The notes beneath the pieces were generated by a model, which did no database searches, was not told the origin of the DNA, and was given only the letters and a program-made list of their open reading frames with translations. The position numbers and the translations under genes were made by a program. Of a DNA stretch of 51,177 nt, positions 17,460 through 51,177 are shown one piece after another. Source of the DNA: Candidatus Altimarinota bacterium (GTDB lineage: Bacteria; Patescibacteriota; Gracilibacteria; BD1-5; UBA6164). Each line of letters starts with the position of its first letter. The first letter of the stretch is position 1. Location of the stretch: contig JAMONT010000015.1 in assembly GCA_027066455.1 (NCBI GenBank), positions 1 through 51,177 of the forward strand. The letters run 5' to 3'.

Positions 17460-20174
17460 ATGAAAATAAAAGTTATAAAAACAAGAGATTGAGAAATAAT
17501 CCCTTTTGATAAAACTAGAATTGAATCTGTTTTAGAAAAAGCTGCAGAATCTGTTTGAAGAAGAAACTTTGATTTTATTGATGAATTAACTGAAAAAATT
17601 ATTGAAGATTTAAAAGCTCTTTTAATTAATTCTAAATGAGAAGAATTTATTACTATTGAACAAATTCAAAATTCAGTTGAAAATAATTTGATGCTTGAAT
17701 GATATTTTGATATAGCAAAACATTATATTTTATATAGATCTGAAAGGTCTAAAATTAGAGAAAGAGAAAAGGAAAAAGTAGAAAAAAAATTGGAAAAAAA
17801 TATTTTAAAAATTACTAAATCTAACTGAGAAAAAGAGGTTTTTGATGTGGAAAAAATAAAAAATACTTATAAAAAAATTAGTTTTTGATTGGCAAGAAAA
17901 TGTAAATTTGATGTTTTGGAAGAATCTCTTAGAAAATATATTGTTGAAGGAATGAAAACTTCTGATATTGTGAAAATGATGGTAAAATCTGCTATTGATT
18001 TGATTTCTGTAGAAAATACTTCTTGGCAATTTATTGCTGGAAGATTGACTATGGTTGACCTTTATAAGCAAGCTGGAAAAAATAGAAATATGAATATTAA
18101 AAAAATATATGAAGCAAAACATTATAAAACTTTGTTTGATGATTATATTGAAAAAGGTCTTTATTTTAAAGATTTTTATAAATATTATAGTGAAGAAGAT
18201 ATTTTGGAAGCTGGAAATAATTTAAAAAGAGAAACAGATTTTGATTATAATTATACAACTCTTATGATGTATAAAAAAAGATATTTATTAAATCCAAACT
18301 GAATTATAAATGAATTACCTCAAGAAATGTATATGTCTGTGGCTTTATTTTTAGCTATTCCTGAAGGTTTTGAAGAATTAGAATGAGAATATTCTGATTA
18401 TGTTTCTAAAAATGCTGATTTAGAAGATTTGGTAAAAATTCCTGAGAATCTTAGACTTGACTCTAAAGTTAGAAAAAAAAGATTAGAAAGGGCTTTAGAA
18501 ATTTATAAATATTGTTCTAAGTGAATGATTTCTCTTCCAACTCCAACTTTATTAAATGCAAGAACAAATCATCATCAATTATCAAGTTGTTTTGTTTTTA
18601 ATATAGATGATAATTTGAGAAGTATTTATCACAATATTGAAAATATGGCTCAAATTTCAAAATTTGGTGGTTGAATAGGTGTTTATCTTGGGAATATTAG
18701 GTCAAAATGATGAACAATTAGAGGTAGAAAATGAGTTGCTTGAGGAGTTAATCCTTGGATAAAAGTTATTAATGATACAGCTGTTGCAGTTAATCAACTT
18801 TGATCAAGAATGGGTTCTATATCAGTAACTCTTGATATGTGGCATAAAGATATTTTTGAATTTTTAGATATGCAAACTGAAACTGGAGATATTAGAAGAA
18901 AATCTTATGATGTTTTTCCTGCTGTTTCTGTTCCAGATTTATTTATGAAAAGAGTAGAAGAAAATGGTGATTGGACTTTGTTTGATCCTAAAGAAATAAA
19001 AGATATAACAGGAAAAAATTTGCAAGATAATTTTTGAGATGATTTTGAAAAATTTTATTTAGAATGCGAAAAAAATTCTAAATTTGAATTATCTGAAAAA
19101 ATAAAAGCTAAAGATCTTTTTAAAACTTTTATGAAATCTACAGTTGAAACTGGTATGCCTTATGTTTTTTATAGAGATACAGTGAATGCTGTAAATCCAA
19201 ATAAGCACGCGGGAAATATTTATTCTACTCAACTTTGTGTAGAAATTTGTCAAAATACTAGTCCTTCAAAATTTATAGAAGAAGAAATAGAAGATGGAAA
19301 AATTGTTATAAAATATGAACCTGGGGATAATGTTGTTTGTAATTTGGCAAGTGTAAATATTGCAAAAGTAAATAGTGATGAAAATATAGAAAAAGTAATT
19401 CCTGTTTGTATGAGAATTTTAGACAATGTAATTGCAATGAATTTTTATCCTGTGAAAGAAACAAAAATTACAGCTATGAAATATAGATCAGTTTGACTTG
19501 GTTTTATGTGATTAGCAGAATATTTAGCTACAAGTAAATTAGCTTATGATTCTCCTGAAGCTAGAAAAGTAGTAGATATTTTATTTGAAAAATATGCTTA
19601 TACAACTCTAAAGGCTTCTAATAAAATTTCAGTAGAAAGATGAGCTTATGATTTATTTGAGGGAAGTGAATGGTCAAAATGAATTTTGATGTGAAAAGAT
19701 GAAAAATGGTTTAATGAAAATTCTAGAATGTCAGATAAATGGTCACAGTTAATAAAAGATATAAAAGAAAAATGATTAAGATTTGCTTATAATATGGCTC
19801 CAGCTCCAAATACTTCAACAGCTCTTGTTATTTGAACAACAGCTTGAATTGTTCCAGTTTATAAAAAATATTTTGTAGAAACTAATAAATTTGCTCCTTC
19901 TGTAAACGTTGCACCAAATTTGAATGAAGAGACTTTTTGGTATTACAAGGAATATGTTAGTATGGATATGAATGATGTAATTGATATGGTTTCTGTTGTA
20001 TATAAATGGATTGATCAATCAATAAGTTTTGAATGGATGATAAATCCAGAAAAAGTTTCTCCTTCAGAGTTATATTCTTATTATGTAAAAGCTCACAAAC
20101 AAAAAATAAAAACAGTTTATTATGTTAGATCTATGAGTTTAGAAGTGAAAGAATGTGTTAGTTGTAGTGGGTAG
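17460..20174 (+). CDS. nrdA: Class I ribonucleoside-diphosphate reductase, alpha subunit, with two ATP cones
   Basis: 904 aa. Makes deoxyribonucleotides from ribonucleoside diphosphates together with a radical-generating beta subunit, which is not in this window. Two ATP-cone domains stand in tandem at the N-terminus (about 3-95, TRDGEIIPFDKTRIESVLEK; and about 115-200, NGEKEVFDVEKIKNTYKK), where allosteric ATP/dATP would bind. The catalytic barrel follows. The redox pair Cys377 (SSCFVF) and Cys627 (VVCNLASVN) and thiyl Cys593 with Glu595 (TQLCVEI) are present; Gln591 stands where Asn is usual. The C-terminal shuttle cysteines are C899 and C902 (ECVSCSG), so the protein is complete. Its TAG stop is part of a mobile palindromic repeat. 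Confidence 0.95.
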
Positions 20175-20275: not shown

Positions 20276-20374
20276 AAGGGTTGAAACTCTCTGTTGACAA
20301 ATTGGGTTTATTTTTAATTAAAAAAAATGGAAAAAGATATACTAAATGATTGAGAAAAGAAGCCTTTATTTTAG
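20276..20374 (+). pseudogene. Remnant of a PemK-type locus: leader repeat plus 15-codon ORF
   Basis: About 65 bases here match, at roughly 85%, the leader of the intact PemK gene at 36470-36540: a GGGTTGAAAC hairpin arm, then CTCTGTTGACAA, then GGTTTA, an A/T stretch and ATGGAAAAAGAT. The ORF from 20327 reads MEKDILNDGEKKPLF and stops at TAG 20372-20374, so only the extreme N-terminus survives. The matching leader shows that the two loci share an origin. Confidence 0.6.
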
Positions 20375-20382
20375 TAAAAAAA

Positions 20383-20450
20383 ATTAATCTTGATTATAAA
20401 ACATTAAACTTATATAATTAAATTACACTAAGAATACTAGTGATTTTATA
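20383..20450 (+). promoter_or_regulatory. Twin promoter/operator repeat, copy 1
   Basis: A 68-base block nearly identical (64/68) to 20749-20816. It contains TTGATT (20390-20395), 17 bases, TATAAT (20413-20418). Downstream, at the predicted transcript start, lies the inverted repeat CACTA-N7-TAGTG, a likely repressor site. All four differences between copies lie outside the -35, the -10 and the two arms. Confidence 0.75.
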
Positions 20451-20466
20451 AAATAACCAATATATT

Positions 20467-20736
20467 ATGTATATAGAAAAATTTAATGATATTTTTAAGA
20501 GTATTAATAATGATACTTTTGTTTTAAAATATTCAGATAAAGAGTTTATTATAAATGAAGATGTAACTTTACATTGAAATCTTTTAGTTTTACTTTGAAA
20601 GTGTAAAAAAGTTATTTTTAAAAAGGAGGTAAGAATAACCTCTTGTAGTATTTTATGAGAGAAAAAGTTATACTATGATATTGATGTTGGTATTGATTTT
20701 TGAAATATTATTTTTAAACAAAATTGTACATTTTAA
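20467..20736 (+). CDS. Small unknown protein under twin operator copy 1
   Basis: 89 aa, not recognised. Begins MYIEKFNDIFKSI; the middle alternates hydrophobic and polar residues (DKEFIINEDVTLHGNLLVLL) as in a beta-rich or left-handed beta-helix fragment, ending FGNIIFKQNCTF. Three cysteines. No membrane segment is certain. It is preceded by the promoter/operator repeat, as is the next gene, so both should respond to the same regulator. Its composition is like the host's, with TGA used for Gly. Confidence 0.65.
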
Positions 20737-20748
20737 AATTATTAAAAA

Positions 20749-20816
20749 ATTAGTCTTGATTATAAAATATTAAATTTATATAATTAAATTACACTAAAAA
20801 TACTAGTGATTTTATA
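20749..20816 (+). promoter_or_regulatory. Twin promoter/operator repeat, copy 2
   Basis: Second copy of the 68-base block: TTGATT, 17 bases, TATAAT, then CACTA-N7-TAGTG. It stands directly before the gene at 20834. Confidence 0.75.
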
Positions 20817-20833
20817 TTTTAAAAATTATTATT

Positions 20834-21163
20834 ATGGTAAAAGAAATTTATTCAAACTTGAATAAAGTAGGTATCAAAAAAATTGATACTAATAAAGTTA
20901 ATTTAATTATAGATAATCTAAAAACTATTTCTAAAAAAGACTCAATACTTATTGATTGTTGAGATACAAGTGAATTAGATACTATTAGGAAATCTAAAGT
21001 AGTTATGGGTTTGGCTATTAATGCTGATAAATCAATTATTAACAAAGCAATTGAAGAGGTATGTAAAAAAATGAAAATTTTTAAAAATAAAAAAAATAGA
21101 GTGGTTTTTTATTATTTGTTAAGTTATTTATTAGAAAAGGAAGAAAAAATAACTGTTATATAA
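20834..21163 (+). CDS. Small unknown protein under twin operator copy 2
   Basis: 109 aa, not recognised. Lys/Ile-rich, probably alpha/beta: SILIDCGDTSELDTIRKSK, then VVMGLAINADKSIINKAIEE, then a basic helix and FYYLLSYLLEKEEK. There is one Gly encoded by TGA, so it is expressed with code 25. It shares its whole promoter region with the gene at 20467 but not its protein sequence, which suggests a two-gene accessory module. Toxin-antitoxin is possible but not shown. Confidence 0.65.
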
Positions 21164-21492
21164 CAAAATAAGTGTAATAATAAAATTGTAGAAATTTTAT
21201 AATAAATAAATAATGTTATAATACTATAATGGAAAAAATTAAAAATTTGTATTTTCCTGTTAGTAATGAAGATATGCAATAAAAAAACACTCATTTCTGA
21301 GTGAATTATATTTGGCCTTACTTTTCAGTAAGGGTGGATCCCTAAGGACTTAGTAAAAGTATTATATCTTTTTTGTAAACAAAAGTCAATATTTTTTTCT
21401 TGTTTTTTTCCTAAAGTACTAAAAAAAGCAAGTTTTTATTTGAAATTTTTGATAAATCAGTATATTAGGATGAATAAAACTAAAAAAAAATT
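21164..21492 (+). other. Intergenic region with a mini-ORF and a structured element
   Basis: 329 bases. A 17-codon ORF (21229-21282, MEKIKNLYFPVSNEDMQ) has a TATAAT just upstream but could be a gene remnant. At 21286-21378 two hairpins (CACTCA/TGAGTG; CCTTACT/AGTAAGG) are followed by GTGGATCCCTAAGG and AGTAAAAGTATTATATC; a partly similar block is at 36930-36975. Nearer the methylase, a TTGAAA/TATATT pair (21440-21466, 15-base spacing) is a weak promoter candidate for the defence operon. Confidence 0.45.
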
Positions 21493-22449
21493 ATGACAAC
21501 TCTAACTTTAAATTCTCTTTCTTCCAAATTTGGTTTAACAATTCATATTGTTAGATCTTGGTTAGAGCATTTGGATTTTTCTTCACAACAAGAAGCAGAA
21601 GTTTTTTTTGAGGAAAATTTGCAAATGATAAAAGCTAAACCTTTTATAAAATGGGTAGGTTGAAAAAGGCAACTTATAGCACAATTTCAAGAACTTTTCC
21701 CAACAGAATTTAATAATTATCATGAACCTTTTTTATGATGATGAGCTGTATTTTTTAATTTACAAAAAGAAAAAAGTTATCTGTCTGATGTAAATGAGGA
21801 ATTAATAAATCTTTATAAAGTAATAAAAAATAAACCAAAAAAATTAATATCTTTTTTAGAAAGTTTAGAATATTCAAAAGAAAAATTTTTAGAGTTAAGA
21901 TTTTGGGATAGAGAGGAATGATGATTAAAAAAATATTCAAAAATAGAAAGAGCTGGAAGATTTATATATTTAAATAGAACTTGTTTTAATTGATTATATA
22001 GAGTAAATAGTTCGGGAGAATTCAATGTTCCATTTTGAAAATATACAAATCCAGATTTTGTACAAAAGAAAAATATTTTAAATACTTCAAAACTTTTAAA
22101 TAGAACAAAAGCAAAAATAAAGCTGTCAAGTTTTGAGCAAGTTTTAAAAAATGCAAATTCCTGAGATTTTATTTATTTTGATCCACCTTATGATGTTTTA
22201 ACTGAAAGCTCCAATTTTACCAGTTATGACAAATCCTGATTTTGACAAGATATGCAAAAAAAATTAGCAAAAGTTTTTAGAAAGTTAGACAAGATGTGAT
22301 GTAAAGTTATGCTTTCAAATCACAATACACCATTTATAAGAAAGCTTTATAAGGGTTTTGATTTTAAAATTGTAAAAGCCACAAGAATGATAAATTCTAA
22401 GGCTAGTGGAAGGGGGAAAGTTGAGGAAATAGTGGTGAGAAATTATTAG
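21493..22449 (+). CDS. DNA adenine methyltransferase, Dam/DpnM type
   Basis: 318 aa. Alpha-class adenine-N6 methyltransferase, expected to protect GATC sites from the nuclease at 23886. The SAM-binding motif is KPFIKWVGGKRQL (about 49-61) and HEPFLGGGAVFF (about 78-89); the catalytic motif is DPPYDVLTESSNFTSYDK (from Asp230). The C-terminal VEEIVVRNY is typical. There are about 48 extra residues before the catalytic domain (from MTTLTLNSLSSKFGL) that look helical, perhaps a small DNA-binding or dimerisation segment. Ends with TAG. The next gene begins 18 bases later. Confidence 0.93.
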
Positions 22450-22466
22450 TTTTTAATAAATAAATT

Positions 22467-23303
22467 ATGATTAAATTTTTGAAAGATTTTATGAAAAGTC
22501 TTTGAATAATAAGTATTTTACTAACAATTCCTACATTACTTTTTGTAGATTTTACTAAAAATATTATTTGAAATAATTGAACTTATTATTTTATAATTAT
22601 ACTGTTAATAAGTTTAATTTATTGAATAATCAGAACATTACCATTAAAAAATATTAATATAAAAATTAAAAATAAATTAAATGTTATTATTAAATATTGA
22701 GATTTATTTAGTGAAAAAGGTATAATTGTAATTCCTGTAAATGAATATTTTGATACAATTGTTGATGATGAGATTATTTCAAAAAATACTATCCATTGAC
22801 AATTTATAAATAAATACTTTTTATGAGATACTAGAGAACTAGATAATAAAATAAAAATTGAATTAAATAATATAGAATCAATTGAAAAAAATAATTCTAG
22901 AAAAAAATGAAAAAAAAATAAATATAAATTATGAACTAGTATTAAAATAAGGTTAAATAATGAACAGGTTGCTATATTAATAGTATTAAGTAAATTTAAT
23001 AGTAATAATACAGCTTATATTAAACGATGATATAGTTATAATATAAATATTGAATTTCAAAATTTTTTCATATTAATGTTAGAATGAATTTATAAATATT
23101 CTCAATGAAAAAATGTAAATATATCTTTAATATGATCTTGATTATCATGATTACCTTTAGATAAACAAAAAAATTTAGAATATATCCTATTTTTAATATA
23201 TTTATATTCTTGAATTCTTAAAGATAGAAATGAGTTAATTCAGATTATTTTACATAAAGATAATAAAAAAGAAATATCCTTAAATAAAATAAATACTTTT
23301 TAA
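22467..23303 (+). CDS. Type II Thoeris effector: two membrane segments plus macro domain (DUF6430-like)
   Basis: 278 aa. Two membrane segments (about 13-29 and 40-56) are followed by a soluble domain from about 65 to the end. It matches the macro-like domain I know as DUF6430: KYGDLFSEKGIIVIPVNEYF, then DDEIISKNTIHGQF, and later SLIGSGLSGLPLDKQ, a glycine-rich ADP-ribose-binding loop. In type II Thoeris, from memory, such proteins sense histidine-ADP-ribose made by the TIR partner and damage the membrane. The TIR gene follows 11 bases downstream, the diagnostic pairing. Membrane toxicity is inferred from the family. Confidence 0.85.
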
Positions 23304-23313
23304 TAATAAAAAT

Positions 23314-23865
23314 ATGACTTACAGAAATTGAACATATATAGCTTTTAGTTGAAATAATACTACTGATCCAACAAAATCTGATATTAAATATTTTAATATG
23401 ATTAAATGATGGAATAGTATGAAAGGAAAAGATTTTTCATTTAATAATAGTCATGAAAAAACCTATCAAGTTAGAGATACAAGTCATATTTCAACATTAA
23501 AAAATAGACTTTCAGAAAGATTATCAAAATCAAAACATCTTTTATTAATAATAACAGACCTTTCAATATATAATAAATGAATGTTAAATTGGGAAATAGA
23601 AAAAGCAGTAGATAATTATAAGTTACCAATAATTATTGTTTATCCTTGAGATAATTATATTTTAGCTCCAAATAAATTAGAACATCTTTGGCCTTCATCA
23701 TTAAAAATTAGAATAAATAATTGAGATGCTAAATGTATTCATATACCATTTAAAGAAATAGTTATATCTAGTGCATTAAATCAATTTTCAATACATGATG
23801 AACAAATTAGTACATCTCTTAATTATTATACAAAGGAAACATATATAAACTGGGGACTAATTTAA
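23314..23865 (+). CDS. thsB: ThsB-like TIR-domain protein (Thoeris)
   Basis: 183 aa. TIR-like domain of the ThsB/MTH538 type (DUF1863): strand A YIAFSGNNTTDPTKSDIKYF, then KGWNSMKGKDFSFNNSHEK, the helix STLKNRLSERLSKSKHLL, strand LLIITDLS, and the active-site helix MLNWEIEKAVDNYKLP with the presumed catalytic Glu94. The order YIAF..D..YF..W..F.F....I...L..RL..SK matches ThsB sensors, which detect phage and make an NAD-derived signal. Partner effector directly upstream; a DpnII-like nuclease starts 20 bases downstream. Spacing suggests one operon across all four genes. Confidence 0.88.
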
Positions 23866-23885
23866 CTATAAATAAATTTTTAAAA

Positions 23886-24752
23886 ATGCAAAACTTCCAA
23901 ACCCTAATCTCCACACTCCAACCCTCAATATTTTCTTGGGATTACTTTTCAAACTTTGAAAAAATAAAAGAAAATACTTTTGAGATAAAAGTTCAGTTGA
24001 ATATTCTGAATTCTCTTTTAGGTGAAAAAAATATTGAAGAAAAATTTTTAGAATTAATAAAAACTTATCCTGAAATTAGAAAAGTTTTACCTATTTTAAT
24101 TGCTGTTAGAAAATTTGATAAACAAATTTTGGATAAAGAAAATTTTGAAATAAAAGAAGTAAAAAATTTATTTAATCCTGAAAAAGATTTTGAAGAAATT
24201 GAAATGCTGAAATTTTTTGAAATTTCTTGATTAAAAAAAGTTTTTGAAAATAAATATATTTCAAATTTGAATGATTATGTTTTTGGGGTTGAAACTGGAC
24301 TTGATAGTAATGCAAGAAAAAATAGAACTGGAGATTTGATGGAAGATTTGGTTGAAGAATTTGTAAAAAATTTGTGTGAGCAAAAAGGCTTTGAATATAG
24401 AGAACAAGCAACAGCAAAATTTATGAAGGAAAAATGGGAAATAGAAGTTAAATCTGATAAATCAAGTAGAAGATTTGATTTTGCTATTTTTGATAGTGAG
24501 AAAAAACAAGTGTATTTGATAGAAGTAAATTATTATGGTTGAGGTTGAAGTAAACTAAAAGCAGTAGCTTGAGAATTTGCTTGATTATATGACTTTATGC
24601 AAAAACAAAATATTCCTTTTTTCTGGATTACAGATTGACTTGGTTGGCATACATCAAGTAAACCACTTGAAGAAGCATATAATAAAATGGATGGAAATAT
24701 TTATAACTTGGAAATGTTGAAGGAATGAATTTTATTTGAATTAGTAAAATAA
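23886..24752 (+). CDS. Type II restriction endonuclease, DpnII family
   Basis: 288 aa, the same length as R.DpnII as I recall it. Expected to cut unmethylated GATC. The conserved block GLDSNARKNRTGDLMEDLVE (about 137-156) is the family signature. The nuclease core is RRFDFAIFDSEKKQVYLIEV with Asp198, Glu213 and Asn215 as a PD-(D/E)XK variant (ExN). GLGWHTSSKPLEEAY near the end is also typical. The N-terminal 120 residues are helical. Starts 20 bases after the TIR gene; the matching methylase is separated from it by the Thoeris pair. The following gene begins 2 bases after the stop. Confidence 0.93.
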
Positions 24753-25332: not shown

Positions 25333-25569
25333 ATGTTAGAGAAACAAATAAAAGATTTTTTGAAAAAACAAAACTTGAAACAAAGTGATGTTTATAAGGA
25401 ATTAAAAATTTCTAAACAAAATTTTTATAAAGCAATTAGGACAAAAAATTTTGATAACCCAACTTTGCAAAAAATTCTTGATTTTCTCTGACTTGAAATT
25501 TTTATTTTATTAAAAGAGAAAAATGAAGATATTAAAAAAAGTACATTATCATCAACTTGAAAAAGTTAA
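25333..25569 (+). CDS. Small XRE-type helix-turn-helix regulator
   Basis: 78 aa. A single HTH domain: KKQNLKQSDVYKELKISKQN then FYKAIRTKNFDNPTLQKILD, close to Cro/CI-like and restriction C-protein folds, followed by FLGLEIFILLKEK. Probably controls expression of the restriction-modification operon. The 3' end overlaps the next ORF by 47 bases in another frame if that gene starts at its first ATG. Confidence 0.8.
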
Positions 25570-27114: not shown

Positions 27115-28512
27115 ATGAGAAATTTTAATAAAATATTTTTAGTAATATTTTTAATGATATTCACAAATTCTATTAGTTTTGCACAAACTGATAGAAATTT
27201 TTCTGGTCTAAAAGGAAAAATTGAAATTTTGAATGATAATAAAGATTTAACTTTAAAACAAAAATTAAAATTATTTATTGTTTTAAAAAATAAACAAAAA
27301 AAATTAAAAGAAGAAAAAGCAAAAAAAATAAATTTTAAAAATAATTTAATTTTAAAACCTTTATTAAATCAAGAAAAAAAAGAAGAAAAAATAAAAAAAC
27401 CTAAGAAAGAAAAAGAAGTTAAAAATATAAAAAATAATAAAAAAATTGTAAAAAAAATAGTTGATTTAAATTTACCAAAACTAATAAGAGTAGGAAGTAA
27501 TTTTTATGATAAACCGTTTTATGTTTGACAAAAACCAGTTTATAAAACTAAATATTATCTAAATCCAAAAACAATAAAAGAAAAAAAAGTTTTGGTTGCA
27601 AAATTAGAAAAGCCAAAACCAATAAGAGTAGGAAGTAATTTTTATGATAAACCGTTTTATGTTTGACAAAAACCAGTTTATAAAACTAAATATTATTTAG
27701 ATCCAAAAACAATAAAAAAAGTAGAAAAAAAAGTTTTGGTTGCAAAATTAGAAAAACCAAAACCAATAAGAGTAGGAAGTAATTTTTATGATAAACCGTT
27801 TTATGTTTGACAAAAACCAGTTTATAAAACTAAATATTATTTAGATCCAAAAACAATAAAAAAAGTAGAAAAAAAAGTTTTGGTTGCAAAATTAGAAAAA
27901 CCAAAACCAATAAGAGTAGGAAGTAATTTTTATGATAAACCATTTTATGTTTGACAAAAACCAGTTTATAAAACTAAATATTATTTAGATCCAAAAACAA
28001 TAAAAGAAAAAAAAGTTTTGGTTGCAAAATTAGAAAAACCAAAACCAATAAGAGTAGGAAGTAATTTTTATGATAAACCATTTTATGTTTGACAAAAACC
28101 AGTTTATAAAACTAAATATTATCTAAATCCAAAAACAATAAAAGAAAAAAAAGTTTTGGTTGCAAAATTAGAAAAACCAAAACCAATAAGAGAATGAAGT
28201 AGGTTTTATGATAAACCATTTTATGTTTGACAAAAACCAGTTTATAAAACTAAATATTATCTAAATCCAAAAACAATAAAAGTTTTGGCTGTAAAAAAAA
28301 CAGGGAAAAAAAATGTAAAGAAAATAGAAAAAAAAGCTATTATTGTAAAAAAAGTTTTGGATACAAAAAAAGTAGAACAAAAACTTATAGTTCAAGCAAA
28401 AGAAGAACCAAAGCCAGTAAGGCAGGGAAGTATTTATTATGATAAACCATTTTATGTTTGACAAAAATCTATACCTTGAACAAAATATTATTTAAAACCA
28501 AGTAATAATTAA
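27115..28512 (+). CDS. Secreted protein with seven near-identical repeats
   Basis: 465 aa, family unknown. Signal peptide 1-23 (IFLVIFLMIFTNSISFAQ), a Lys/Glu-rich stretch (about 50-115), then seven repeats of 46-48 residues with the core GSNFYDKPFYVGQKPVYKTK and YYLNPKTI, linked by Lys-rich KVLVAKLEKPKPIR. Repeat 6 is changed (EGSRFYDKPFY) and repeat 7 is the most diverged (RQGSIYYDKPFYVGQKSIPG). The very basic repeats with aromatic clusters may bind glycan or another polyanion. Near-identity at DNA level suggests recent amplification. Followed by a long palindromic terminator. Confidence 0.85.
27484..28500 (+). repeat. Seven tandem 138/144-bp coding repeats
   Basis: Units begin at 27484, 27622, 27766, 27910, 28048, 28186 and (diverged, after a longer spacer) 28416. 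Two unit lengths, 138 and 144 bp, differ by a two-codon insert (KV) in the linker. Copies 1-5 are almost identical. Confidence 0.95.
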
Positions 28513-28514
28513 GG

Positions 28515-28560
28515 AAAAAGTAAAAAAAATATTTTTTAAAAAATATTTTTTTTACTTTTT
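28515..28560 (+). terminator. Long perfect palindrome terminator
   Basis: A 46-base perfect palindrome of A/T with one G/C pair per arm, starting 2 bases after the stop codon. A second small hairpin (GCAAAA/TTTTGC followed by T) is at 28571-28590. Confidence 0.85.
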
Positions 28561-31145: not shown

Positions 31146-31196
31146 AATCCCTCTCACCTGAATCCTCTCTCCCCTTACGTGGAGAAAGGGGCTACA
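31146..31196. repeat. GC-rich palindromic element, copy R2
   Basis: CCCTCTCACCTGAATCC, then TCTCTCCCC, then GTGGAGAAAGGGGCTACA. Very close to R5 and R8 in the helicase gene. Confidence 0.85.
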
Positions 31197-31249
31197 AGAT
31201 AAGGAAGAAAAAATAATAAAAAATAACAAAAAAAGTAAACTAAAAAATG

Positions 31250-33061: not shown

Positions 33062-36000
33062 ATGAAAAATATTATTAAACAAGACTTTTTAGAAAAAAAT
33101 TATCAAATGTTAAATAAAGCTCAAAAAGAAATTGTTGAGCAAATTTATTGACAAATTATGGTTGTGGCTGGACCTTGAACAGGAAAAACTCAAATTATTG
33201 CTCTTAGAACAGCTAATATAATTTTGAAAACTGGAATAAATCCTGAAAATATTTTGATTACAACTTTTACAGAAGCCTGAGTAATTGCAATAAAAAAAAG
33301 ATTAGTTAGTTTTATTTGAACTGAAGCTTATAAAGTAAAAGTGTCTACAATTCACTCTTTTTCTCAAGATATAATTACTAGTTTTCCTGAAAAATTTGCA
33401 GAATATAAAGCATTAAATAATATTTCTGATATAGAAACTTTGGAAGTTTTGACTGATATAATAGATGAAAATATTAAAAATAATAATATAGAATATTTAT
33501 TTTCTCCTTATGATAGATATATGTATTTGAGAGATATTAAAGATAGAATTTGAAAATTGAAAGCAGAATGAATTAATATGAAAAAATTTGAAAAAATTAT
33601 TTTTGATTTGAGAAAAAATTATGATGAAAAATTGGAAGAATTAAAAAGTAATAAGAGAATTAGGGATTTGGAAAAAAGGACAAAAAAAGATTCAGAAATT
33701 TATAATAAACATATAAAAAAATTGGAAGAATTAAATTATATTTACTGATTATATCAAGAATTTTTGAATAAAAATAGTTTGTATGATTTTTCTGATATGA
33801 TTAATTTTGTTGTTGATAAATTTAAAAAAGATGAAGATTTGAAATATTTAATTGCAGAAAAATATCAATTTTTAATGTTGGATGAATATCAAGATACGAA
33901 TAATCCACAAAATGAAATTATGAATTTAATTTTGAGTGTTTCTGATGAAAAAAATATTATGGTGGTTTGAGATGATGACCAGTCAATTTATAGATTTCAA
34001 GGTGCAAATATAGAAAATATGTTGGATTTTTCTAATACTTATCCTGATACAAAATTTATAGTTTTGGAAAATAATTATAGAAGTTCTCAATCTATTTTGG
34101 ATTTATCAATGAATTTAATTGAAAATAATTCTCAAAGACTTATTAATAAATTAGATTTTTTAGATAAAAAATTAATAGCTCAAAGTATTTATAAAAATTT
34201 AAATAAAAATAAATATTATATTTTACAAGATGAACAATTAGAAAAATTATTTGTTTTGGAGGAGATGAAAAAGAAAAATCCCCCTATCCCTAGCCCTTTT
34301 CCCCCAAGGGAGAAAGGGAACTTAGAAAAAAAAGCCCTCTCTCTTGAATTCTCTCTCCCTGATGGGGAGAAAGAGGCTGCAAAACAAAATGAAGAAACTT
34401 TTGCAATAATTTGTAGAAGCAATAAAGAGGTTGAAAGTTGGACAAAATTTATGCAGTTGGAATGAATTGAGGTTGAAAGTAAATTAAAAACAAATATTTT
34501 GAAAAATAAATTTGTAAATTTTATTTTAAATTTTTTGAGCATAATTGAAAATCCAAACTCTAGTGATGAAAAATTACTTGATATTTTAAGGACAGAAATT
34601 ATTGATGTTGAAAACATTGATGTGATAACTTTAGCTAGAGAATTATATAAAAAAAATTATTCAAAAAGTTGATTTAAATATAGTTTGTGGGAGTTGGTGA
34701 AAAGAGAATTAAGCTCTTATTCTAACCCTCACCCTAACCCTCTCCTTTGAGAGGAGAGGGGACAAGAACAAAAAAACTCCCATCTCCCCCAAGGGAGAGG
34801 GGCTGGGGGTGAGGGATTTCAAGCAATTTTAGAATTAGAACAAGAAGAAAAATATAAAAGTTTTGAGAAAATTATAGATTTTAGAGATTTGATTTTAGAA
34901 TTAAATTCTAATCTAGGTCTTTATTGAATTTCAAGATTATTTCAAAAATTATTAGATAAAATTTGATTAGTTGAATATATTGAAGTGCATTGAAATTTTT
35001 CTGATTTGGAAGATGTTTTTAGTTTGTTTAATAAAATAAAAAGTTTTAATGAAAGAAATTCTGAATTAACTTTGAAAGAATTATTGAATAAATTTGATTT
35101 GCATCATAAATATAATATTGCAATTCCTAGACAAATTTTGAAAAAAACAAAATCAAATATAGAAATTTTAACAGCTCATTCTAGTAAATGATTGGAATAT
35201 GATTATGTTTATATTCCTTGAGTTTTTGCTTGAAATTGGGAAGGAAAAAGAATTGTAGATAAATTAAAATTACCATTACATATAGTTTGAGAATGATTAC
35301 AATTTGCTTGATTATCAGAAAAAGAATTAAAAGATATTGAAAAAGAAACTCAAACACAAGAAGATAGAAGATTATTTTTTGTAGCAATGACGAGAGCAAA
35401 AAAAGAACTTATTTTTACAAGACCAGCTTGAAAGGAAAATAAACCTTATATTGACAGTTCTTTTATTTTAGAAACAGGATTAACATCAACAGTATTAGAA
35501 AATTCATTTTCAGAAAATGAAATAAAAAAATCTATAAAAAATACTTTATTATCAAATGAACAAAATTTGATAAAAGTATCTAAAGATGAAATAAATTATA
35601 TTTCAGAATTTTTAGAAACTTATAAATTAAGCCCAACAGATTTGAATACATTTTTAGAAGACCCAAAGCAATTTTTGAGAAATGTTATTTTTAAGTATCC
35701 TTTTAATGGAAATGAATTTACTATTTTTGGGAATGTTTATCACAAAGTTTTAGAAATATTTACAAATGCAAAAATCAGAGGAGAAAAAATAGAACTTTGA
35801 ATGATTACAGAAAAATTTTTAGAACTTTTGAATTATCAAATTTTAACTTCTGAAGAAAAAGAAAGATTAACAAAAAAATGAATTGAATGATTAACTTGAT
35901 ATTTTGAACATTTTACAAAAAATCCTAGAACACCTTTAGTAGTAGAATACAATTTTAGAAGTAGAGATGTAGTTTTTGAAGGAGTTAGAATTACTGGGAA

Positions 36001-36445
36001 AGTTGATAAAGTTGAAAAAGTTTGAGATTCACTAACTAGCCCTCTCTCTTGAATTCTCTCTCCCCATTCAGGGGAGAAAGAGGCTACACAATCAGCACTT
36101 TTTGTAGAAGATGTAGCTGTAGTTGATTATAAAACTTGAGCTATAAAAACTCAAGGAAAAATTAAATGAGTTGATAGATATTGAAATAAAAAGGATAATT
36201 TTGAAGAAGGGAAATATTATAGGCAATTACTTTTTTATAAACTTTTGGCTGAAAATGATAGAGAATTTAATTCAAAATTTAATGTTGTTGAGTTGGCTCT
36301 TGATTTTGTAGAATGAAAAAATTGAGAATATAAATATGTTGCAATTAGTCCAGAACAAGATGATTATGAAGAGTTTAAAAAGTTAGTTAAAGATAGTTGG
36401 GGGAAGATAAATAGTTTAGAGTTTTGGGAGGAAGTTTTGGGGTAG
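33062..36445 (+). CDS. UvrD/PcrA-type helicase with C-terminal PD-(D/E)XK nuclease, carrying in-frame palindromic inserts
   Basis: 1127 aa. SF1A helicase: Walker A AGPGTGKT (36-43), motif Ia TTFTEAGVIAIKKRL, Walker B MLDEYQDTNNPQ (Asp274-Glu275), motif III GDDDQSIYRFQGA, motif IV FAIICRSNKEVE, motif V/VI LTAHSSKGLEYDYVYIPG and RRLFFVAMTRAKK. The C-terminal nuclease has the AddB/RecB-like core GKVDKVEK and VAVVDYKTG, then YYRQLLFYKLL. Likely role: recombination or repair of double-strand ends. Five GC-rich palindromes sit within the ORF at about residues 406-439, 553-585 and 991-1009 (translated PIPSPFPPREKG, NPHPNPLLGEERG, SPLSGILSPHSGEKEA). None breaks the frame. All are at expected surface loops; the last lies between the catalytic Asp strand and the DYKTG strand. 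TAG stop. Confidence 0.93.
34280..34320. repeat. GC-rich palindromic element, copy R4 (in the helicase gene)
   Basis: CCCCCTATCCCTAGCCC, TTTTCCCCCAAGGGAGAAAGG. Translated in frame as PPIPSPFPPREKG, just before motif IV of the helicase. Confidence 0.85.
34334..34380. repeat. GC-rich palindromic element, copy R5 (in the helicase gene)
   Basis: GCCCTCTCTCTTGAATTC, TCTCTCCC, TGATGGGGAGAAAGAGGCTGC. Translated ALSLEFSLPDGEKEA. Nearly the same DNA as R8, but read in a different frame. Confidence 0.9.
34723..34763. repeat. GC-rich palindromic element, copy R6 (in the helicase gene)
   Basis: AACCCTCACCCTAACCC, TCTCCTTTGAGAGGAGAGGGG. Translated NPHPNPLLGEERG, where one Gly is a TGA. Confidence 0.88.
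34777..34815. repeat. GC-rich palindromic element, copy R7 (in the helicase gene, inverted)
   Basis: CTCCCATCTCCCCCAAGGG, AGAGGGGCTGGGGGTGAGGG: opposite orientation to R6, 13 bases away. Translated SHLPQGRGAGGEG. Confidence 0.88.
36037..36088. repeat. GC-rich palindromic element, copy R8 (in the helicase gene)
   Basis: TAGCCCTCTCTCTTGAATTC, TCTCTCCCCATTCAGGGG, AGAAAGAGGCTACACA. Translated SPLSGILSPHSGEKEAT between the two catalytic strands of the nuclease domain. Confidence 0.9.
36392..36445 (+). repeat. Direct repeat, copy A (3' end of the helicase gene)
   Basis: The last 54 bases of the helicase gene, ending in its TAG. About 50 of 54 bases recur at 37037-37093, on the far side of the PemK cassette. 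Confidence 0.85.
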
Positions 36446-36473
36446 TAGGGGAAAGTGGATTAATATTAGTAAA

Positions 36474-36528: not shown

Positions 36529-36918
36529 ATGGAAAAAGATTTTGATAAATGGAATGAATTGAAAAAAGAAATAGAATGTAATGATGAAAAATTACTTTTC
36601 AATCAGTGAGAGATTTGGTGGTTATCTGTATGAATAAATTCTAGGCAAGAAACTTGTTGAAAATGAAGAAGTTTCAGAAGACCAATTTTAGTTTTGAAGA
36701 AATTATCATCAAACACTTTTATTTGAATTCCATTAAGTACAAAAATAAAAATCTGAACTTGGTTTGCACAATATACACAACATTGAGAAGATTTTACAGC
36801 TTTATTATATCAAATAAGAATGTTTGATATTGGTAGATTTCAAAGAAGGATTTGAGAAATGGATGAAAAAGATTTTTTAGAAATAAAAAATAGACTCAAG
36901 AATCTCTTAAATCTATAA
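36529..36918 (+). CDS. PemK/MazF-family toxin-like protein
   Basis: 129 aa. PemK/MazF fold: FNQGEIWWLSVGINSRQE (about 26-43) with the conserved start of the barrel, then KGRSFRRPILVLKKLSSNT, IGIPLSTKIKIGTW and the C-terminal block LLYQIRMFDIGRFQRRIG with KDFLEIKNRLK. Typical members are sequence-specific mRNA endonucleases. A short charged N-terminus (MEKDFDKWNELKKEIE) precedes the barrel, as in a subfamily I recall in Patescibacteria. No antitoxin ORF lies next to it, so it may be solitary or the N-terminal segment may act in control. Flanked by a 55-base direct repeat; looks like an acquired cassette. Confidence 0.85.
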
Positions 36919-37036: not shown

Positions 37037-37093
37037 GATAGTTAAGAGAAGATAAATAGTTTGGAGTTTTGGGAGGAAGTTTTGGGGGAGTAG
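37037..37093 (+). repeat. Direct repeat, copy B (orphan copy of the helicase 3' end)
   Basis: 57 bases matching the end of the helicase gene, including TTTTGGGAGGAAGTTTTGGG and a final TAG, but not part of an open frame (TAA near its start). Confidence 0.85.
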
Positions 37094-48488: not shown

Positions 48489-48508
48489 TTTTTAATAAAT
48501 ATTTAAAA

Positions 48509-48690
48509 AACTATGAAAAAACTAATTTCAACAAATCCTGCAAATAATTTTGAAATTATTTGAGAAGTAAATATTTCTACTAATAAAGAAATTATAGAAA
48601 AAGTAGAATTTGTAAATAAAGCAAAAACTACTTGGAAAGAATTATGATTAAAAGAAAGAATAAAATTAATTACTCCAATTTGTAAAGAAT
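48509..48690 (+). repeat. Segmental duplication, copy 1 (aldehyde dehydrogenase 5' end)
   Basis: About 180 bases, from just before the ATG to the ICKEF codons, match the second copy with one clear substitution (GTA/GCA) plus changes at the end (AA/GG). Confidence 0.9.
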
Positions 48691-48851
48691 TTAATTTTAA
48701 TATACTTCCTGAAAATTTAAAAAATATATATACTGATTGATATAAAGATTGAGAATTATGTAGCCCAAAAGATTTTTGAAATAAAACATTAGATTTTTTA
48801 GAAACAAGTGTTGCTAAAATGTTTAAAAAACAAGTGGAAGAATTATTTTAG
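48513..48851 (+). CDS. Chimeric ORF: aldehyde dehydrogenase N-terminus fused to an unrelated tail
   Basis: 112 aa. Codons 1-60 are nearly identical at DNA level to the start of the aldehyde dehydrogenase at 50288 (MKKLISTNPANNFEIIGEVN...). After LITPICKEF the sequence switches to NFNILPENLKNIYTDGYKDG and ends DFLETSVAKMFKKQVEELF, not related to dehydrogenases. The tail looks like the end of another protein. It is probably a product of partial duplication and has no dehydrogenase activity. A strong palindromic terminator follows. Confidence 0.75.
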
Positions 48852-50251: not shown

Positions 50252-50285
50252 AAAAATAAAAAAAATTATATAACATAAAACAAAA

Positions 50286-50466
50286 CTATGAAAAAACTAA
50301 TTTCAACAAATCCTGCAAATAATTTTGAAATTATTTGAGAAGTAAATATTTCTACTAATAAAGAAATTATAGAAAAAGTAGAATTTGCAAATAAAGCAAA
50401 AACTACTTGGAAAGAATTATGATTAAAAGAAAGAATAAAATTAATTACTCCAATTTGTGGAGAATT
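50286..50466 (+). repeat. Segmental duplication, copy 2 (aldehyde dehydrogenase 5' end)
   Basis: The source copy of the duplication at 48509-48690, here continuing into a full dehydrogenase, so this is the original locus. Confidence 0.9.
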
Positions 50467-51177
50467 TAAACAAAGAAAAAATGAAATAGCTGAACTTATT
50501 ACAAAAGAAATAGGGAAGACAAATAAAGAATCAATTTGAGAAGTTGAGTGGAATATTTGAGAATTTGAATGGTATTTAAAAAATGTTGAAAATGCAATAA
50601 AAGATGAAATTACTTTTGAAGATGAAGAAGTATTAAATAAAATTGTTTATGAACCAATTTGAGTTACGGCCATAATTATACCTTGGAACTTTGCTTTTGG
50701 TTTAGCTATTTGGAGTATAATTCCAAATTTACTTGTTTGAAATACTATTATTTTCAAAATTTCAGAAGAATGTCCTTTATTATGAAAATTAATTGAAGAA
50801 ATTATAAATAATGCTAATTTACCAAAATGAGTTTTTTCTGAAATTTATTGAGGTTGAAAAGTTTGACAAAAACTTCTAGAAGAAAATATTGATTTGATAT
50901 GGTTTACTTGAAGTACAAAAGTATGAAAGCATTTGTATGAAATTGCATCAAAAAAATTTATAAAAATTAAATTAGAAATGTGATGAAGTAATCCTTGTAT
51001 TGTTTTTGATAATAAAATAGAAAACTATATAGACACAATTTTTGAATGAAGATTTCATAATAATTGACAATCTTGTAGTGCAATAAAAAGATTAATTGTT
51101 CACGAAGATATTTTTGACGAAGTTGTAGAAAAATTAAAAAAATTAGTTTTAGAAAAAAATATTCTTAATTCTAGTGA
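50288..51177 (+). CDS. Aldehyde dehydrogenase, partial (cut by the window end)
   Basis: At least 296 codons. NAD(P)-dependent aldehyde dehydrogenase, closest in style to succinate-semialdehyde dehydrogenases: IVYEPIGVTAIIIPWNFAFG (cofactor-side motif), NTIIFKISEECPLLG, DLIWFTGSTKVGKHLYEIAS (Rossmann Gly motif), the general-base Glu in IKLEMGGSNPCIV, and the catalytic Cys in HNNGQSCSAIKRLIVHEDIF. The C-terminal third is outside the window. Its first 60 codons are duplicated at 48513. Confidence 0.95.

What the first reader, a model, noticed from the sequence alone, without database searches (positions are those of the whole stretch)
20383..20816. Duplicated promoter/operator driving two unrelated small genes
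Two 68-base blocks (64/68 identical) each precede a small gene (89 and 109 aa) that do not resemble each other. Each has TTGATT-N17-TATAAT and CACTA-N7-TAGTG at the predicted transcript start. Differences avoid all these elements, so they are under selection. This is a ready-made regulon: a common repressor would control both genes. Neither gene is known; they lie 0.3 kb from the defence island.
Basis: partly seen in the sequence, partly recalled or inferred. Interest (0 to 1): 0.66.

Follow-up and report, generated by a model that had tools for sequence, protein, structure and literature searches.

The report
Duplicated promoter before two small genes
In a tiny bacterium with an unusual genetic code, a 73-base promoter-like stretch was copied so that it sits in front of two neighbouring unrelated small genes; the copy is real, but it occurs nowhere else in the genome, so it is a local two-gene arrangement rather than a wider control network.

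Summary
A 73-bp direct repeat (20378-20450 and 20744-20816; 69/73 identical, no indels) lies at nearly the same distance (89 and 90 bases) before two ATG-start ORFs of 89 and 109 aa. The genome reads TGA as Gly (code 25). Both copies carry TTGATT-N17-TATAAT and CACTA-N7-TAGTG at the predicted start. (i) Four transitions missing the named elements is expected by chance (P=0.10-0.23), so it shows no selection. (ii) The exact dyad occurs only at these two sites in the 1.49-Mb assembly. One-mismatch sites (9) are no commoner than the reversed control (7), and most lie inside genes. There is no genome-wide regulon. (iii) Gene 2 is a DUF2853 (PF11015) protein; gene 1 is an orphan in every collection searched. 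(iv) The 'defence island' is real: a DpnII-type R-M cluster with Thoeris genes inside it. Best reading: a recent local duplication of one promoter/leader that gives two adjacent accessory genes the same promoter and, if the dyad is functional, the same control. The same genome has two other 57-71-bp repeats bracketing toxin-antitoxin-like genes, so the repeat may also be a scar of gene insertion. Ordinary to mildly interesting.

The parts
20378..20450 (+). 73-bp repeat copy 1: promoter-like block and start of leader
   Evidence: 69/73 identical to 20744-20816
20744..20816 (+). 73-bp repeat copy 2
   Evidence: E 6.2e-27
20390..20418 (+). TTGATT-N17-TATAAT, copy 1 (putative -35/-10)
   Evidence: such 10/12 matches occur about 1 per kb by chance
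20756..20784 (+). TTGATT-N17-TATAAT, copy 2
20426..20442 (.). dyad CACTAAGAATACTAGTG, putative operator or 5' mRNA hairpin, copy 1
   Evidence: only two exact matches in the genome
20792..20808 (.). dyad CACTAAAAATACTAGTG, copy 2
20467..20736 (+). gene 1, 89 aa, orphan, 4 TGA read as Gly; strand-rich in a low-confidence model
   Evidence: coding score +0.17 bits/codon versus at most 0.02 for spurious ORFs; no relatives; model pLDDT 42
20834..21163 (+). gene 2, 109 aa, DUF2853 (PF11015) protein
   Evidence: E 8.6e-15 over residues 15-103; PDB 2pyq_A E 0.0024
20280..20375 (+). apparent remnant of an older small-gene cassette just upstream of copy 1: element GTTGAAACYCTCTGTTGACAA and short ORF MEKDILNDGEKKPLF, alignable to the start region of the PemK-like gene at 36529
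   Evidence: (78% over 95 nt)

Best explanation
One 73-bp promoter/leader block (-35 to about +25) was duplicated recently and locally, so that two adjacent, unrelated accessory genes (an orphan and a DUF2853 gene) are each transcribed from their own near-identical sigma-70-type promoter. If the dyad at about +1 to +17 is functional, a repressor dimer bound there would block initiation at both promoters alike. No sense-strand terminator was predicted between gene 1 and copy 2, so gene 2 probably also receives read-through. Shown: the duplication, its position relative to the two start codons, and its uniqueness in the genome. Inferred: that the block is an active promoter, that the dyad binds anything, and that the two genes are co-regulated.
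For: The 73-bp repeat is 69/73 identical, without indels, and ends 16-17 bases before each ATG. The -35/-10 spacing is 17 and the predicted starts fall on the dyad in both copies. Both ORFs look coding, at +0.17 and +0.34 bits per codon. Similarity stops near the end of the block and the proteins are unrelated. The exact dyad occurs in the genome only here.
Against: Promoter matches of this quality are as common in shuffled sequence. The dyad has only 5-bp arms and about a 1-7% chance in such sequence. The positions of the differences carry no signal. No relative with the same arrangement was found in which conservation could be tested. No repressor gene has been identified.
Confidence: 0.62

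Rival explanations
1. The repeat is chiefly a scar of gene insertion. Gene 1 (with a copy of the neighbour's upstream sequence) was inserted in front of the DUF2853 gene, for example by single-crossover integration or tandem duplication followed by replacement, leaving direct repeats on both sides. Shared promoter activity is a by-product, and recombination between the repeats could delete gene 1.
For: In a 215-kb sample of the same genome, two other short direct repeats bracket toxin-antitoxin-type genes: 36392-36448/37037-37093, the UvrD 3' end, around a PemK-like toxin gene; and a 71-nt repeat in L072 around HicAB-like genes. Just upstream of copy 1 lies an apparent remnant of a PemK-type cassette. 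The interval lies between an RNR gene and a defence cluster. Gene 1 has no relatives in the order or in the phylum sample.
Against: The repeat boundaries fit a promoter block placed at nearly the same distance from both ATGs (89 and 90 bases), which a random scar would not predict. No empty site is available in any relative.
Confidence: 0.22
2. The conserved dyad acts in the RNA: a 5'-terminal stem-loop (CACUA/UAGUG, 7-nt loop) at the predicted +1 that protects both mRNAs or tunes translation.
For: The dyad starts at the predicted transcript start. Leader 1 folds into this hairpin (-3.3 kcal/mol for the hairpin).
Against: In leader 2 the lowest-energy fold is a different one. The stem is weak, and no covariation can be tested because the arms are identical in both copies.
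Confidence: 0.1
3. A wider regulon under one repressor that includes these two genes.
For: The dyad is placed where an operator would be.
Against: There are no further exact sites in 1.49 Mb. One-mismatch sites are about as frequent as the reversed control (9 beyond these two, versus 7), and 7 of the 9 lie inside genes. No LexA DNA-binding domain was found.
Confidence: 0.04
4. A neutral AT-rich repeat without a promoter role.
For: AT-rich sequence, and promoter-like matches at background frequency.
Against: Its register to two start codons is near identical, and it carries the best + strand promoter match of the region twice.
Confidence: 0.02

Closest known systems
DUF2853 family (PF11015), PDB 2PYQ
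   Same: Gene 2 matches the profile over residues 15-103, above the curated cut-off (55.6 versus 25 bits).
   Different: Divergent member with weak similarity to 2PYQ. Present in only 3 of 77 genomes of the order, and the two other loci show no gene 1 or similar upstream block.
Duplicated promoter/operator serving two adjacent genes (general knowledge of bacterial promoters with short inverted-repeat operators)
   Same: Near-identical upstream blocks, dyad at the predicted transcript start, same orientation.
   Different: Repressor unknown; the genes are unrelated; no third site in the genome.
Gene insertions bracketed by short direct repeats, as seen in the same genome around PemK-like and HicAB-like genes
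   Same: 57-73-bp direct repeats bracketing small accessory genes.
   Different: Here the repeat is an intergenic promoter-like block, not the end of a gene.

Membership tests
Co-regulated pair or regulon under a shared repressor | Same operator-like dyad at both promoters, at the same position | tested here: met
Co-regulated pair or regulon under a shared repressor | Further operator copies at promoters elsewhere in the genome (needed for a wider regulon) | tested here: not met
Co-regulated pair or regulon under a shared repressor | A repressor that binds the dyad | not testable with these tools
   Nearest Cro-type HTH gene 25333-25569 has no such dyad upstream; LexA DNA-binding domain not found
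DUF2853 (PF11015), gene 2 | Profile score above the curated cut-off | tested here: met
   55.6 bits versus 25, residues 15-103
Dispersed mobile or intergenic repeat | Many copies in the genome or in relatives | tested here: not met
   two copies only; the few pattern matches elsewhere lie inside genes or are weak AT-rich matches
SOS (LexA) regulon | LexA in the genome | tested here: not met
   no PF01726 match at E up to 1 (assembly 97.7% complete)

The most novel reading that the evidence does not exclude
An orphan gene and a DUF2853 gene at the edge of a DpnII/Thoeris cluster are switched together by a dedicated, still unidentified repressor acting at two duplicated +1 operators, so that both are small accessory factors of the defence cluster.
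Probability: 0.06. Interest if true: 0.5.

Novelty: new member of a known kind. Interest (0 to 1): 0.22.

Why it matters
My literature searches found nothing on promoters of these TGA=Gly candidate-phyla bacteria, and a recently duplicated promoter pair is a convenient natural pair for mapping transcript starts. It also shows how accessory genes may gain expression by promoter duplication. Otherwise it is ordinary.

Tried and rejected
SOS/LexA box: no LexA DNA-binding domain found. Dispersed repeat: two copies only. Pattern matches in Aquimarina and in two viral contigs lie inside genes. TATAAT-N7-dyad in viral contigs: 14 stretches, many inside genes, with no consistent context. Phage LR756508 hit to gene 1 (30%, E 0.08): no convincing ORF. 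Lak-phage DNA similarity (76% over 61 nt, E 5e-3): treated as AT-rich chance. Residual homology of gene 1 and gene 2 as diverged tandem copies: score 37, below the 95% null of 39, so rejected. Fold search with the gene 1 model: nothing significant, and the model is poor. The gene 2 single-sequence model is also poor and was not used. Rfam: no match. Literature on DUF2853: one paper, which lists it among unannotated temperature-responsive Bartonella quintana genes (PMC3595295); none found on promoters of these bacteria.

Full report
SETTING. The window is the whole of contig C15 (51,177 bases) of a 1.49-Mb, 102-contig assembly, 97.7% complete, with 20.8% GC. Its genes are open only when TGA is read as glycine (NCBI table 25, SR1/Gracilibacteria). 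Under that code the finding lies between a ribonucleotide reductase gene (17460-20174) and a D12-class adenine methylase (21493-22449) that opens a defence cluster.

OBSERVATION. The repeat is real and slightly longer than reported: 20378-20450 and 20744-20816, 69/73 identical, no indels, 366 bases apart. It ends 16-17 bases before each ATG. The hexamers TTGATT and TATAAT, spacing 17, and the dyad CACTA-N7-TAGTG are as described. The blocks are homologous beyond doubt (E 6e-27). The promoter letters by themselves are not significant: matches of 10/12 or better occur 0.96 per kb on the + strand and 1.0 per kb in shuffles. A dyad with 5-bp arms, at least two G/C pairs and a loop of 3-12 is found in 1.3% of shuffled blocks, 1.8% of shuffled start regions and 7.4% of random intergenic 32-mers. 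It is suggestive, but the second copy adds no independent support because it is a duplicate.

SELECTION CLAIM. All four differences are transitions, and they miss the named elements with probability 0.10-0.23 by chance, depending on the block length used and on whether the dyad loop is counted; one difference lies in that loop. This is no evidence for selection. It fits a recent duplication.

REGULON CLAIM. The exact dyad occurs only at these two places in the assembly. The 27-base core with up to 3 mismatches also occurs only here. With one mismatch the dyad has 9 further places against 7 for the reversed control. Seven of those nine lie inside genes, one lies in a strong hairpin and one in a short gap about 30 bases upstream of a topoisomerase I-like gene. 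Across 48 genomes of the family, near-matches were common in every genome and showed no excess over the reversed-pattern control. A genome-wide regulon is not supported.

GENES. Gene 2 belongs to DUF2853 (PF11015, 55.6 bits, cut-off 25) and weakly matches the solved structure 2PYQ. In the order, 3 of 77 genomes carry the family, and the other two loci have different neighbours and no similar upstream block. Gene 1 has coding character (+0.17 bits per codon; spurious ORFs at most 0.02; other small genes of the window 0.15-0.64) but no relatives in the order, in 380 genomes of the phylum sample, in viral contigs, or in Pfam, PDB and NCBIfam; PHROGs gave only weak matches, E 0.03 or worse. A weak hit in G046 runs through two TAA stops and is discarded. 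Its single-sequence model is strand-rich with pLDDT 42, too poor to interpret.

ORIGIN. The residual similarity of the two genes is at background, so they are not recognisable as diverged tandem copies. In a 215-kb sample of the genome two other short direct repeats bracket toxin-antitoxin-like genes: the last 57 bases of the UvrD-like gene are repeated beyond a PemK-like gene (36392-36448/37037-37093), and a 71-nt repeat brackets HicAB-like genes in L072; HicAB is my reading of the sequences, not a profile match. Just upstream of copy 1, 20280-20375 resembles the upstream and start region of that PemK-like gene and looks like its remnant. The interval is therefore a place of gene turnover, and the repeat could be an insertion scar as well as a promoter duplication. 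The near-identical register to both ATGs favours the promoter reading.

MECHANISM. Most likely (0.62): two near-identical promoters, one before each gene, from a recent local duplication, with the dyad at the predicted start as a possible common operator. The scan predicted no sense-strand terminator between gene 1 and copy 2 (the nearest terminator-like site on that strand, 20624-20644, lies inside gene 1), so gene 2 may also be read through from the first promoter. An RNA role of the dyad is weaker, because only leader 1 folds into that hairpin as its best structure.

VERDICT. Observation confirmed. Interpretation partly supported: two neighbouring genes with a duplicated promoter-like block, possible common control, no wider regulon, no evidence of selection, and gene 2 is a known domain family. 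Promoter activity, operator binding and co-regulation remain inferred.

Noticed in passing
window 34330-34389, 36038-36091, 31146-31197; L072 16745-16799 and others: A dispersed ~50-nt palindromic repeat (CCCTCTCTCTTGAATTCTCTCTCCC-loop-GGGAGAAAGAGGCTACA), 19 matches in a 215-kb sample. At least three copies sit in frame inside genes: twice in a UvrD-like helicase and once in an HtpG-like gene, adding about 17 residues. It resembles the protein-coding palindromic elements known from Rickettsia (from memory, not tested).
   Followed up: partly
window 21493-24752: Thoeris genes (ThsA macro-domain protein, ThsB TIR protein) lie between the adenine methylase and the DpnII endonuclease gene of a restriction-modification cluster, which continues with a Cro-type HTH gene and a second methylase.
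   Followed up: partly
window 36392-36448 and 37037-37093: The last 57 bases of the UvrD-like gene are repeated (91%) beyond a PemK-like toxin gene (36529-36918), as if that gene had been inserted at the helicase 3' end.
   Followed up: partly
L072 12312-12382 and 13789-13859: A 71-nt repeat (93%) brackets HicAB-like small genes, downstream of a DnaK-like gene.
   Followed up: partly
window 48507-48694 and 50282-50469: A 188-nt, 98% identical duplication of the 5' end of an apparent aldehyde dehydrogenase gene (by eye); the first copy continues as a 112-aa ORF of different sequence.
   Followed up: no
window 21288-21389, minus strand: TTGACT-N17-TATAAT (11/12, the best promoter match of the region), followed by two hairpins and a T-run terminator: a possible ~70-nt small RNA before the methylase gene. 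No Rfam match; only short 20-28-nt matches in relatives.
   Followed up: partly
window 27300-28520: A 465-aa ORF with seven 138-144-base tandem repeats, up to 97% alike, next to the defence cluster; no Pfam match.
   Followed up: no
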